Below, piece after piece: positions 4,276-27,441 of a stretch of DNA of 27,552 bases. Each line of letters opens with the position of its first letter. Position 1 is the stretch's first letter. Under the pieces are notes generated by a model that saw nothing but the letters and a program-made list of their open reading frames with translations, was not told the origin of the DNA and searched no databases. Source of the DNA: a virus; IMG/VR virus record IMGVR_UViG_3300046012_000491, positions 1-27,552 of that record. One strand, given 5' to 3'. Position numbers and translations under genes: made by a program.

Positions 4276-5040
4276 ATGGACAAGAGGCGACTCGGCTGGC
4301 GCGTGGTCAATGCGGCAGCATCTCCGCGCGAAGCGGACATTCTCCTGTTCGATGTCATCGGTGGTGATGGCTTCTGGGAAGACGGCACGACCGCAGCGGA
4401 CTTCGTCAAGGAGCTGATCGACCTCAAAGGGAACGTTGATCTCATCCGGTTCCATATCAACAGCCCCGGTGGCTACGTTGATGACGCCCTGGCGATGTAC
4501 CAGGCCATTCTTGATCATCCTGCGACGACAGAGGCTCACATCATCACGGCGTACTCCGCCGCGTCGTTCGTCGCGCTCGCAGCTGACAAACGGCTGATCG
4601 CCAAGACCGGCAAGGTCATGATCCACGACGCGTTGACCTACGCATACGGGAACGCTTCCGACATGCGAGCGCTCGCCGATCGGCTCGATGCGGAGAGCGA
4701 GAACATCGCTTCTATCTATGCAGACAGGGCAGGCGGCCAACCGGCCGACTGGCGTTCACGGATGCAGGCCAACGGCAAGAACGGCACCGAGTACCGCGGC
4801 CAGCAAGCAGTTGACGTTGGGCTGGTGCAGGAACTCATGCCTGCCTCCAAGAACGAATACAGCGAGCGGATCGCGGCGCTCGTGACTGAAACGACTGCGC
4901 CCACCAACCCCGAACCCTCCGCCCAGGTGATCGACTTCGCGGCAGCGATTCGCGCTGCTCGCCTGGAGTCGCCCACCCCGACCCTCCAGCAACTGCTGGA
5001 GACACAGTCGTCACTCTCAACCGCCCTCAAAGGAGCCTGA
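4276..5040 (+). CDS. Prohead protease, ClpP-like serine peptidase
   Basis: A 254-residue ClpP/SppA-fold peptidase that probably trims the capsid scaffold before DNA packaging. Family features are visible in order: HINSPGGYVDDALAMY (residues 60-75), the nucleophile region AYSAASFVALAADKR with Ser97 in the AAS position, and MIHDAL with catalytic His117. A helix containing the likely third member, an Asp in DMRALADRLD, follows. The C-terminal 60 residues are a variable tail. The start at 4276 lacks a good ribosome binding site; the 78 bases upstream hold three imperfect GTCCGGTT repeats at about 11-base spacing. The major capsid gene follows directly, as usual. Confidence 0.92.
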   Translation: MDKRRLGWRVVNAAASPREADILLFDVIGGDGFWEDGTTAADFVKELIDLKGNVDLIRFHINSPGGYVDDALAMYQAILDHPATTEAHIITAYSAASFVALAADKRLIAKTGKVMIHDALTYAYGNASDMRALADRLDAESENIASIYADRAGGQPADWRSRMQANGKNGTEYRGQQAVDVGLVQELMPASKNEYSERIAALVTETTAPTNPEPSAQVIDFAAAIRAARLESPTPTLQQLLETQSSLSTALKGA

Positions 5041-7768: not shown

Positions 7769-8131
7769 ATGGCGGGCACGGTAACTGTCGTTGAGGAGCG
7801 CTACGGCTCCGTGAAGAAGGTCGCCTGGACGTGGACGGCCACGGCCGGCGGCGCGGCGGACCTCGTCACGGCGAACGCTTACAACGGCGCCGTCGAGCGA
7901 TTGGTCACGGTGCCCGATGCGGGAACTGCGCCAACGGACAACTACGACATCACGGTCACCGACGAGGACGGCACGGACGTGCTCATGGGCGCGGGCGCGA
8001 ACCGCGACACGCTGAACACCGAACAGGTGCTCGCCTCATCGCTGGGCGTGGTTGCCAACGACAAGCTCACGCTCAACATCAGCAACGCTGGTAGCGGCGG
8101 CAAGGGCGTCACCTACCTGTACATCCGCTGA
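7769..8131 (+). CDS. Beta-rich structural protein, small
   Basis: A protein of 120 residues starting three bases after the previous gene. It begins with a strand (GTVTVVEERYGSVKKVAWTW) and continues with a jelly-roll-like alternation of polar strands (NYDITVTDEDGTDVLMGAG, KLTLNISNAGSGGKGVTYLY). It has no cysteine and no catalytic motif. The context suggests a virion component near the head-tail joint. The family name is not recognised. Confidence 0.65.
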   Translation: MAGTVTVVEERYGSVKKVAWTWTATAGGAADLVTANAYNGAVERLVTVPDAGTAPTDNYDITVTDEDGTDVLMGAGANRDTLNTEQVLASSLGVVANDKLTLNISNAGSGGKGVTYLYIR

Positions 8132-8142
8132 GAGGGGAATCG

Positions 8143-8349
8143 ATGCGAAGGGAATGGGGTGGCTTCGGAGCGATTCTCAGCGAGGCGGAAGCGTTCGATG
8201 AGGTGAACCGCAGCACGCCGCGGCTTGCGTGCCCGCGCTGCAGCACGCCGCTCGATGTGAACGGCGAGGGCGCGGTGAACTGCCCGATGGGCCACTACCG
8301 GCGTGCTTCGCGGCCGATGCTTTCGGAGGACGCCGATGGCTCTCAGTGA
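8143..8349 (+). CDS. Small zinc-ribbon protein
   Basis: A protein of 68 residues with CPRCSTPLDVNGEGAVNCPMGH (Cys-x-x-Cys, then Cys and His about 15 residues later), a one-site zinc ribbon. GAGGGG upstream supports the ATG at 8143. The gene overlaps the start of the connector gene by 14 bases. Similar short zinc proteins are widespread in actinophage-like late operons and are not well characterised. It is one of five small Cys/His proteins in this window. Confidence 0.65.
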   Translation: MRREWGGFGAILSEAEAFDEVNRSTPRLACPRCSTPLDVNGEGAVNCPMGHYRRASRPMLSEDADGSQ

Positions 8350-8932
8350 TGCCTACGCGACGGCCGCCGAATACCGCACGCAAACGGACAAGTCCAGTAC
8401 TGCCGACGACACCACGATCGCCAGCGAGCTGACTGCCGTGTCGCGCTACATCGATAAGCGGCTCGCGCGCCCGCTCGGGTTCAGCAAGGACGCCACGGCG
8501 GTCGCGCGCGTGTACGTCATGGGACGACCGTTGCGCATCGATGTGGATGACTACGTCTCGGTGAGCAGCGTGGAAGTCGGCGACCACTACAGCCAGGTTT
8601 ATGATTCCGCGCTGGCCACGTCGGCCTATGCGCTCTTGCCGCGGGCGGCTGCTCAGCAACCGGAGCCGCAGCCCTATCGGCAGATCGAGTTCCTCACGAA
8701 CTGCCCGGGCTACCAGCAGCTCGTGCGCGTCACCGGCATTGGCGGGTGGCCAGCGGTGCCCCCGGCGATAAAGGCCGCGTGCATCGAACTGACGAGCATC
8801 CTGCGGCTGGAGTCGGCGCGGGCAACAAACAAGGTCAACGCCATGGACCAGGTGCTGAGCACGAGCCGTGTGGCGCAGAACATCATCGACGAGCTCTTGC
8901 GCGTCTATCGCAACAAGGCGGCCATCATCTGA
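8336..8932 (+). CDS. Head-tail connector (adaptor) protein
   Basis: A 198-residue protein that probably docks under the portal ring. The start is set at the ATG at 8336, preceded by GGAGGA, rather than an in-frame ATG at 8303, because the family begins with the helix DAYATAAEYR. The early helix bundle (ASELTAVSRYIDKRL), a beta region with GRPLRIDVDDYVSVSSVEVG, and the closing WPAVPPAIKAACIELTSI helix match head-tail connectors of the gp6 type. It overlaps the next gene by the single A of TGATG. Confidence 0.82.
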   Translation: MALSDAYATAAEYRTQTDKSSTADDTTIASELTAVSRYIDKRLARPLGFSKDATAVARVYVMGRPLRIDVDDYVSVSSVEVGDHYSQVYDSALATSAYALLPRAAAQQPEPQPYRQIEFLTNCPGYQQLVRVTGIGGWPAVPPAIKAACIELTSILRLESARATNKVNAMDQVLSTSRVAQNIIDELLRVYRNKAAII

Positions 8933-25383: not shown

Positions 25384-25548
25384 TCACATCATCTCGGCCA
25401 TGATGGCCGACTTTGCCTGCTGCACGCGCTGGAGCTTCTGCTCGAGCTCGGCTCGGCGCTCTGGCGGCAGGTCTTTCGCGAGCGCGTTGCACGCCTCGAA
25501 GATCGCCTGGAAGCCGCTCACGACGTGGTTCGCCAATACTCTGTCCAT
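25384..25548 (-). CDS. Small helical protein, minus strand
   Basis: A 54-residue frame with an ATG at 25548 and an in-frame GTG 15 bases earlier. It is predicted mostly helical with a charged centre: HVVSGFQAIFEACNALAKDL, then PPERRAELEQKL and AKSAIMAEMM. The frame stays open with plausible residues for about 30 codons upstream but without a canonical start. It is the last gene of the minus-strand accessory block, after the aspartic protease. It is not recognised. Confidence 0.45.
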   Translation of the reverse strand: MDRVLANHVVSGFQAIFEACNALAKDLPPERRAELEQKLQRVQQAKSAIMAEMM

Positions 25549-25641
25549 GGCGGCAGTGTGCACCTGGCGCGGCGCGACGTCCGAGGCCCGGGCGTCACTG
25601 CGAACCTTGACGGTTTGAGGGATTGCGGTGGGGACGTTGGG

Positions 25642-26085
25642 TCACCGGAGGTACTTAGCTCTCCGATCGGCCTGCTTGTCTTTTCGCTCCCGAATGGCCT
25701 GAGCATTCGCTGCATAATCGATGTGCTCGATGGATGGATGGCGAAATGAGAACTTCGTAATCCCCCCAACATTCGTCACGGCGAAGTCCCCCCGGCTGAT
25801 GATGTCCATTCCGATCAATAGGTCGGTGCTGGTTAGCTGGCCGCGCGTCACCTGAATACCATGGAAGCCAACACCGTTGGGGAGGATGATATTGACGAGA
25901 AACGTCGGAACCTGCTCAGATCCATGAACTCCATGCACCTGAACGATGCCGGTCGCAACGAGCCCACATTGGTCGATGCACCCTTGAGAAATGACCGAAT
26001 TTGTTGCCCCGGTGTCCCAGATAGCATCCATTTCCAGAGGGACAGGCGCCGAAGTGCCGCTGGCCGGATCCCAGGCTGGCGACAC
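25642..26085 (-). CDS. Retropepsin-like aspartic protease
   Basis: From the GTG at 26085 the protein has 147 residues. It carries the retropepsin active-site motif WDTGATNSVIS with Asp24-Thr25-Gly26, a glycine-bearing flap region (HGVHGSEQVP), and the second conserved hydrophobic-Gly element LLIGMDII (Gly92). It ends GDFAVTNVGGITKFSF. Retropepsins work as dimers with one Asp from each chain. The frame continues upstream with a family-like segment (DFRAFTTTASGRANVLTNKC) to a GTA at 26157 that overlaps the partner stop. The true start may lie there, giving about 171 residues. Lower G+C than the virion genes suggests separate acquisition. Confidence 0.8.
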   Translation of the reverse strand: MSPAWDPASGTSAPVPLEMDAIWDTGATNSVISQGCIDQCGLVATGIVQVHGVHGSEQVPTFLVNIILPNGVGFHGIQVTRGQLTSTDLLIGMDIISRGDFAVTNVGGITKFSFRHPSIEHIDYAANAQAIRERKDKQADRRAKYLR

Positions 26086-26153
26086 TAGGCACTTGTTCGT
26101 GAGGACGTTCGCGCGACCGGAAGCCGTGGTGGTGAACGCGCGGAAGTCGCCGG

Positions 26154-26399
26154 CTACGAGAACACCACCCGGGAATGGAATGTCTGCGTGTACCCCTCGG
26201 GCCCGCTCGTTACCCGTTGGATCAGAAAGGTACCCAGCTCATGGTGCTTCTTGGTCTCGAGGAGAGCCGCCATTTCCGAGTCGTAAGATCCAATGATGGT
26301 GCCGCCCTTGATGACCACGAACTTGCCGTCATGCTCGGCCGCGATCTCGGCCTGGTGATCGAGGTAGTACTGGAATTCGTTTTTTAGCTGGCTGTCCAT
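26154..26399 (-). CDS. Protease-partner protein, FLIQ…TFHSRV family
   Basis: An 81-residue protein with the ATG at 26399 chosen because it begins the family-like helix DSQLKNEFQYYLDHQAEIA. It continues with strands GKFVVIKGGTIIGSYDSEM, a helix MAALLETKKHHELG and a conserved end, GTFLIQ then GYTQTFHSRVVF. The GKFVVIKGG part resembles DUF5678-type domains. I recall proteins of this kind recurring beside retropepsin-like proteases in unrelated bacteria, as here. It may be a regulator, activator or substrate of the protease; that is inference. An earlier in-frame start would add residues with no family resemblance. Confidence 0.7.
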   Translation of the reverse strand: MDSQLKNEFQYYLDHQAEIAAEHDGKFVVIKGGTIIGSYDSEMAALLETKKHHELGTFLIQRVTSGPEGYTQTFHSRVVFS

Positions 26400-26532: not shown

Positions 26533-27441
26533 TCAGCTGCTCTTGCGGCGCCAGATGGGCCGAACGCCGGCGTCGAGCTCGTGGATGATGCCCGCCGAAC
26601 GCTCCTGCCGTCCCTCAGCCCCGTAGATGAGTGTCATCGACGGATCGCTGTGCCCGAGCTGCTCCATGGCCACGTCGAGCGGGGCGCCTGCTTTCAGCCA
26701 GCGCGCGGCCGCTGCCCGCCGGAAGTCGTGGGCCGAGACTTCGATACCCGCGCCCAGCGCGAGTGAGCGGATGGCCGACTGCATCCCATCGCTTGAGAGC
26801 GGCGCATCCCCACGCCCGAGAAAGAGCGCGCCAGGCGCACGCCCACGCTCGCGGATGATGTAGCTATCGAGGGCGCCGCGGCCGGACCGTTCGACCGCGA
26901 TGAGTCGCGGCACGCCGGTCTTCGTGTGGCGCAGCCTGAGGGTGCCCGCCTTGTCGTCGTAGTCGCGCAGCTCGCAGGCGGCGAGCTCGGAGCGACGCGT
27001 GCCCGTGGCCCACAGCATCTCGATGAGGGCGGCGTTGCGGCGTGGGTGTTCGGGGCGTGCCTTGGCGACGAGCAGCAGCTTTTTCTTCGTGCCCGGGGAT
27101 GCCGTTCGGCGCTTGATCTCTTCCGGCCGCACGCGAATCATCTGCACCTTGCGCGTGATGTCGGGCACACCAAAGTCATCCTGAATGTAGAGCCAGCGCA
27201 CGAAGGTCCAGACGGCAGACTGGTACGAATGGATGGCGCCCGGCTTGAGCCCGCGGGTGCGCATAGCGGCACTCCAGGTGCGCAAATGCGTCGTGGAGAG
27301 ATCGGCCACGAGCTCGGGCGCAGCCTCGGAAATGAAGCGGTCGATGGCGTAGCTGTAGTAGGCGCGAGAGGTCGCGCGCACGCCCGCGTCCTCCTTGTCG
27401 ATGAGGAAGAGACGCTTGGCGTCTGCAGTCGTGATGTCCAT
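26533..27441 (-). CDS. int: Tyrosine recombinase / phage integrase
   Basis: A 302-residue site-specific recombinase. The N-terminal core-binding domain (about residues 12-105) has SYAIDRFISEA and HSYQSAVWTFVRWLYIQ. The catalytic domain shows Arg149 in ATGTRRSEL, Lys174 in RHTKTG, His238 and Arg241 in AHDFRR, His264 in LGHSDP and the nucleophile Tyr273 in LIYGAEG, so all catalytic residues are present. GGAG lies ten bases before the ATG at 27441. It reads away from the partial tRNA at the window edge, the usual arrangement for phages that integrate into a tRNA 3' end. Confidence 0.95.
   Translation of the reverse strand: MDITTADAKRLFLIDKEDAGVRATSRAYYSYAIDRFISEAAPELVADLSTTHLRTWSAAMRTRGLKPGAIHSYQSAVWTFVRWLYIQDDFGVPDITRKVQMIRVRPEEIKRRTASPGTKKKLLLVAKARPEHPRRNAALIEMLWATGTRRSELAACELRDYDDKAGTLRLRHTKTGVPRLIAVERSGRGALDSYIIRERGRAPGALFLGRGDAPLSSDGMQSAIRSLALGAGIEVSAHDFRRAAAARWLKAGAPLDVAMEQLGHSDPSMTLIYGAEGRQERSAGIIHELDAGVRPIWRRKSS

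What the first reader, a model, noticed from the sequence alone, without database searches (positions are those of the whole stretch)
25642..26399. Two-gene retropepsin plus FLIQ…TFHSRV partner module in phage accessory block
Seen: a minus-strand pair, an 81-residue protein ending GTFLIQ then TFHSRV and, in a coupled arrangement, a protease with the retropepsin DTGA motif and LLIGMD element. The pair lies between lysis genes and integrase, where phages carry non-virion cargo, and is less G+C-rich than its surroundings. Known: retropepsin-like enzymes in bacteria are few and mostly uncharacterised. I recall the same pair in many unrelated bacteria, which would argue for a mobile functional unit. 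Inference: the partner could be the protease's activator, inhibitor or substrate, in a proteolytic switch used for defence, superinfection exclusion or regulation.
Basis: partly seen in the sequence, partly recalled or inferred. Interest (0 to 1): 0.82.

Follow-up and report, generated by a model that had tools for sequence, protein, structure and literature searches.

The report
Paired small protein and HIV-type protease
A phage genome carries a two-gene unit, a small DUF5678-like protein followed at once by a retropepsin (HIV-protease-like) enzyme, and the same unit in the same order occurs in bacteria of at least 21 phyla, so it is a widespread, apparently undescribed protease-plus-partner system.

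Summary
On the minus strand an 81-aa protein (P1, 26399-26157) is followed at once by a retropepsin (WDTGA, LLIGMD). P1 belongs with Pfam DUF5678 (89 of 123 homologues match). The protease matches gag-asp_proteas, and a homologue's AlphaFold model has the retropepsin fold. The pairing is close to obligatory: among 80 bacterial loci found with the protease alone, all 80 have P1 directly upstream. Searching with P1 first also finds the protease beside it, even for very divergent DUF5678 relatives. Two loci carry DUF5678 and the protease as one natural protein. The unit lies alone among unrelated neighbours and occurs in at least 21 phyla and in phages, including Leptospira phage LE1. AlphaFold places P1 on the protease with high confidence (pTM 0.82 for a read-through pair), but P1's conserved tail (TQTFHSRV) is disordered. 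I conclude that P1 binds and gates the protease (about 0.7). The inhibitor or antitoxin-like role is the best single guess (about 0.4). A defence role is not shown: no defence-gene enrichment. One correction: the GTG start at 26085 is too late. In this clade the conserved N-terminus starts at a GTA/ATA codon overlapping P1's stop, with no ATG, GTG or TTG.

The parts
26154..26399 (-). P1 gene: 81-aa small protein, DUF5678-like, globular part residues 1-68
   Evidence: 89/123 homologues match PF18929, best 1.5e-8; P0001 itself is below threshold (E 0.17); AF2 pLDDT 77-89 for residues 1-60
26157..26195 (-). Conserved, predicted-disordered C-terminal tail of P1 (residues 69-81, GYTQTFHSRVVFS)
   Evidence: Conservation; pLDDT below 50
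25642..26157 (-). Retropepsin gene read from the GTA codon that overlaps the P1 stop (171 aa + stop); start codon inferred, not shown
   Evidence: Protein-level conservation of the N-terminus with third-position changes in L011-L013; Pfam PF13975
26005..26019 (-). Catalytic motif W-D-T-G-A
   Evidence: Invariant W, D, G, A in 117 homologues
25804..25821 (-). LLIGMD, hydrophobic-hydrophobic-Gly element of the retropepsin fold
   Evidence: G and M invariant in 117 homologues
26083..26085 (-).
   Evidence: Cuts off the conserved segment DFRAFTT...NVLTN
26533..27441 (-). Context: tyrosine integrase directly upstream, same strand
   Evidence: PF00589 E 8e-25, phrog_1 E 1.2e-35

Best explanation
This is an autonomous, horizontally mobile two-gene unit: a DUF5678 protein (P1) and a probably cytoplasmic retropepsin made from one coupled message and acting as a complex. 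P1's globular part docks on the protease. Its conserved but unstructured tail (YTQTFHSRV) most likely enters or covers the active-site cleft once two protease subunits have paired. P1 would therefore gate the enzyme, holding it inactive or restricting its substrates until P1 is removed, cleaved or displaced. In the phage it is lysogeny-module cargo rather than a capsid protease. Shown: the pair, its conservation, order and fixed spacing, natural fusion, and the protease fold in a model. Inferred: binding, gating by the tail, catalytic activity, cellular location, mobility and the inhibitor sign.
For: Adjacency is 80/80 in genome loci chosen by the protease only. P1-first searches also return pairs: 19 of 24 loci in 301 Chloroflexota genomes and 9 of 11 in 198 Nitrospirota genomes. 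The start and stop lie mostly within about -10 to +19 nt, a spacing enriched among subunits of complexes (PMC10666635). DUF5678 and Asp_protease_2 occur as one protein in L171 and L191, both above Pfam cut-offs. The AF2 model of a read-through pair has pLDDT 87.9 and pTM 0.82 over 266 residues, of which about 40 are floppy. By my estimate separately placed domains would give about 0.55-0.6. P1 pLDDT rises from about 85 alone to about 97 in the pair, though with different alignments. The tail is conserved in 70-80 of 123 homologues yet disordered. All 5 solitary P1s in Chloroflexota have lost or broken the protease downstream, whereas no chromosomal protease of the close family lacks P1, an antitoxin-like asymmetry. 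The phage already has a ClpP-type head maturation protease.
Against: No biochemical data were found for any member. The joint model is an artificial read-through of a relative (L091), as a monomer, and coordinates could not be inspected. The tail was not placed in a cleft. Inter-protein covariation was weak and confounded by kinship. The solitary-P1 sample is small, from one phylum and from distant DUF5678 types. P1 is half as long as the protease, so it decays less often by chance. Seven phage loci carry the protease without a detectable P1, so P1 is not always needed.
Confidence: 0.5

Rival explanations
1. P1 is a substrate adaptor or activator: it brings specific target proteins to the retropepsin or stabilises its dimer, and the unit is a regulatory protease without toxicity.
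For: Natural fusion of DUF5678 to the protease suits an adaptor or cofactor as well as an inhibitor. About half of the proteases end in a SEC-C motif (56/117), which in known proteins binds metal and protein partners (own knowledge) and would suit targeting. Known bacterial A2 enzymes are described as needing other factors (PMC11957791).
Against: Solitary P1s beside broken proteases are harder to explain for an adaptor. Neighbours show no recurrent target gene.
Confidence: 0.3
2. P1 is the substrate: the protease cuts its conserved unstructured tail and so releases or switches off P1, which is the effector.
For: The tail is conserved and disordered with aromatic-His-Ser-Arg-Val residues, as expected of a processing site. 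Retropepsins are usually processing enzymes (PMC4140852).
Against: DUF5678 has no known effector activity and no PDB fold match. Several subfamilies replace the motif (YTNYISS, YTVTISS).
Confidence: 0.17
3. The pair is a phage-defence or superinfection-exclusion system related to PADLOC's candidate PDC-M08 (a statement about its role, compatible with several of the mechanisms above).
For: 73/117 proteases match PDC-M08B at E<=0.01 (best 4.5e-7) and 2/123 P1s match PDC-M08A weakly (0.015). It lies in a phage next to the integrase.
Against: Flanks of genome loci show no defence enrichment: a few scattered restriction or candidate-defence genes among 150. PDC-M08A matched none of the P1 loci in 550 genomes from three phyla. 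PDC-M08B matches may only reflect the shared retropepsin fold.
Confidence: 0.25
4. The phage copy is a decaying passenger without function: no start codon for the protease.
For: No ATG/GTG/TTG before the conserved N-terminus.
Against: Three independent relatives (51-59% identical, two phyla) lack the start at the same place yet keep the frame, the active site and the N-terminus through third-position changes, which points to selection on the protein.
Confidence: 0.07

Closest known systems
Pfam DUF5678 (PF18929)
   Same: 89/123 P1 homologues match, best E 1.5e-8; divergent members are also followed by an aspartic protease
   Different: P0001 itself is below the curated cut-off (12.2 against 23.2 bits); P1 adds the conserved TFHSRV tail; the family has no described function and is named in one unrelated paper of the library
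Bacterial retropepsins APRc, RimB, RloA (MEROPS A2-like)
   Same: Same fold (Rickettsia APRc 5c9b, Foldseek E 3.7e-5) and D-T-G-A motif; RimB also works with partner proteins
   Different: APRc is membrane-anchored, RloA secreted, RimB partnered by RimK/RimA; none is described there with a DUF5678 partner or a SEC-C tail
PADLOC candidate system PDC-M08 (A+B)
   Same: Two genes including a retropepsin-like protein; most proteases here match PDC-M08B weakly
   Different: The A component is not recognisably P1 at family level; no tested function found in the library
Toxin-antitoxin modules (type II)
   Same: Small first gene, coupled second gene, stand-alone unit with unrelated neighbours, patchy distribution, solitary P1 remnants
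   Different: No toxicity or neutralisation shown; no DNA-binding domain seen in P1

Membership tests
Retropepsin (A2-like aspartic protease) | D-[ST]-G-A active site, later hydrophobic-hydrophobic-Gly motif | tested here: met
   WDTGA and LLIGMD; key residues invariant in 117 homologues
Retropepsin (A2-like aspartic protease) | Sequence-family match | tested here: met
   PF13975 36.4 bits, cut-off 28.2
Retropepsin (A2-like aspartic protease) | Retropepsin fold | tested here: met
   Model of relative L091, best PDB match APRc, E 3.7e-5; not run on the window protein itself
Retropepsin (A2-like aspartic protease) | Active homodimer | not testable with these tools
   Only monomer prediction available
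DUF5678 (PF18929) | Curated profile match | tested here: inconclusive
   Window P1 12.2 bits against 23.2 cut-off; 89/123 homologues match at E<=0.1, 11 of 27 host genomes have a match over the cut-off
PDC-M08 | PDC-M08B match of the protease | tested here: inconclusive
   E 1e-4 for the window protease; no curated cut-off shown
PDC-M08 | PDC-M08A match of the partner | tested here: not met
   No match for P0001; 2/123 homologues at best 0.015
Toxin-antitoxin module | Second protein toxic, first neutralises it | not testable with these tools
   Needs expression
Phage head maturation protease | Encoded in the head module, the phage's only such protease | tested here: not met
   Lies by the integrase on the other strand; a ClpP-type head protease is at 4276-5037

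The most novel reading that the evidence does not exclude
A bacteria-wide proteolytic switch in which a retropepsin is the toxin or effector and a DUF5678 protein is its trans-acting inhibitor, working through an unstructured pseudo-substrate tail, with phage copies that start the protease at a non-AUG codon overlapping the partner's stop to keep its dose low.
Probability: 0.3. Interest if true: 0.85.

Novelty: new variant of a known kind. Interest (0 to 1): 0.62.

Why it matters
Only a handful of bacterial retropepsins have been studied. This pair gives a large, multi-phylum family with a fixed small partner of unknown function, so how bacterial HIV-like proteases are controlled, and what DUF5678 does, become directly testable with two short genes. 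If P1 is a natural protein inhibitor, it would be a rare example of a dedicated partner inhibitor of a retropepsin.

Tried and rejected
Plasmid search with P1 and two proteases: nothing. Phage records: 5 for the window protease, none for L009's P1 at that sensitivity. PDC-M08A as the name for P1: rejected. Defence-island setting: no support. Head maturation protease: rejected. Programmed -1 frameshift for the missing start: no slippery heptamer seen at the junction by eye in the window and L011-L013, so unusual initiation is preferred but not shown. P1 fold search in PDB: no match. Inter-protein covariation with 116 pairs: some top pairs involve the P1 tail, but not separable from kinship. Promoter scan: none found.

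Full report
The window is an IMG/VR virus record of 27,552 bases that encodes a tailed phage: terminase, portal, ClpP-type head maturation protease, major capsid protein and tape measure on the plus strand, and a tyrosine integrase at the right end on the minus strand. The lysis assignment itself found no family match. P1 is 26399-26157; the protease frame ends at 25642. The pair has 58-61% G+C against 64-71% around it.

Families. The protease passes Pfam gag-asp_proteas. P0001 passes no family on its own, but 89 of 123 homologues match DUF5678, best 1.5e-8, so P1 is a divergent DUF5678 relative. All 117 aligned proteases match gag-asp_proteas and Asp_protease_2, and 56 also carry a SEC-C motif at the C-terminus; the window protease does not.

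Recurrence. A profile of nine phage proteases found 312 coding stretches in the genome collection. In all 80 kept loci a P1 homologue is directly upstream on the same strand. Of the 80 viral loci, 72 have it too; L152 is at a contig edge and seven lack it. Searching with P1 alone gives the mirror result: in 301 Chloroflexota genomes 24 P1-like loci, 19 with a retropepsin downstream (one of these, L200, broken in both genes), and the other five with a truncated, frameshifted or insertion-disrupted protease. In 198 Nitrospirota genomes 9 of 11 have the protease; one is a fragment and one has another gene in its place. In 299 Pseudomonadota genomes only the starting genome has it. The unit is widespread but patchy.

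Relatives outside this subfamily. Very divergent DUF5678 proteins in Chloroflexota are also followed by, and often overlap, a divergent retropepsin, so the pairing is older than the subfamily. In L171 and L191 the two are one 200-aa protein, both domains above Pfam cut-offs. Leptospira phage LE1 carries an 80-aa DUF5678-like gene followed by a retropepsin that its record leaves unannotated.

A self-contained unit. Median gaps to the flanking genes are 206 and 145 nt, the neighbours point either way, no Pfam family occurs more than twice among 150 flanking proteins, and defence genes are few and scattered. Genes were called by a simple longest-ORF rule, so these gaps are approximate. The tree of proteases covers 21 named phyla with 32 label changes where 20 is the minimum. 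This is compatible with some transfer, although MAG misbinning and paralogy also add changes.

Coupling and the odd start. Across 155 pairs with a recognisable start codon, most starts lie within about -10 to +19 nt of the P1 stop. In the window and in L011, L012 and L013, which fall with it and L059 in one supported clade (99), there is no ATG, GTG or TTG before the conserved N-terminus. The codon overlapping the P1 stop reads GTA, GTA, GTA and ATA. L059 has GTA ATG at this place, so the ATG was probably lost. The segment after it (DFRAFT...NVL) is conserved with third-position changes, which implies it is translated. I infer termination-reinitiation at a near-cognate codon; one paper reports that the non-canonical codon ATT works at about 0.3% of ATG (PMC10666635). 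That would make little protease per P1, but no measurement exists here.

Structure. P1 and protease of L091 lie in one frame, so the read-through product could be modelled with 32 paired relatives: mean pLDDT 87.9, pTM 0.82. The C-terminal 25 residues and the P1 tail/linker are floppy; for such a chain I estimate pTM about 0.55-0.6 if the two domains were placed independently, so the model implies a confident contact. This is an inference from the score, since coordinates and pairwise errors were not available. The best PDB matches are Rickettsia APRc, DDI1 and retroviral proteases. In the viral library the protease part matches A0A8S5LJK9 and, by its length, the P1 part matches A0A8S5LJB2, both from Siphoviridae sp. 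ct3o911, another phage with both parts. P1 alone is helix-strand-strand-helix-strand with a disordered tail and has no PDB match.

Mechanism. Fixed order, tight coupling, natural fusion and the joint model make a physical complex likely (about 0.7). The conserved disordered tail suggests a peptide that is bound in the protease cleft, as pseudo-substrate, substrate or docking motif. Solitary P1s next to broken proteases, with no chromosomal protease of the close family found without P1, lean towards P1 as the restraining partner (about 0.4), with adaptor/activator (0.3) and substrate (0.17) as rivals. These readings are inferences. Nothing here shows catalytic activity, toxicity or a phage phenotype.

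Known or new. Bacterial retropepsins are a known kind (APRc, RimB, RloA). PADLOC lists a two-gene candidate, PDC-M08, whose B component is retropepsin-like, but whose A component P1 does not match. The library held one paper with the word DUF5678, on an unrelated plant disease, and none joining retropepsin with toxin-antitoxin. I therefore rate the pair a new variant of a known kind.

Noticed in passing
window 26155-26157; L011 1770-2306; L012 1514-2038; L013 6025-6588: The protease of this clade has no ATG/GTG/TTG start; the codon overlapping the partner's stop is GTA or ATA. Unusual initiation, or an undetected recoding signal.
   Followed up: partly
L131, L135, L140, L143 (about 7974-8486): P1-less retropepsins of the same family directly after a large conserved protein of about 355-365 aa in related phage contigs, not beside a P1.
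   Followed up: no
L166 and L167 (about 7785-8303): P1-less retropepsins in phage structural regions, L166 after a head-morphogenesis-like ORF; possibly virion proteases.
   Followed up: no
L220 4980-5519 (Leptospira phage LE1): The retropepsin is missing from the deposited annotation although the 80-aa partner is annotated.
   Followed up: yes
L245 1360-2586 (minus strand): A DUF5678-like gene followed by a different large protein instead of a protease; the partner may be swappable or the protease was replaced.
   Followed up: no
L091 6836-7270 and 7995-8471: Two retropepsins of this family in one phage contig, only the second with a P1.
   Followed up: no
BFVD A0A2U7UG46, A0A2U7UD66, S4VV29 (Pandoraviruses): DUF5678 proteins in giant viruses match the model by fold, probably its P1 part; whether a protease lies nearby was not checked.
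   Followed up: no
window 25384-25563, minus strand: A small co-directional ORF (59 aa) follows the pair; no family above cut-off.
   Followed up: no
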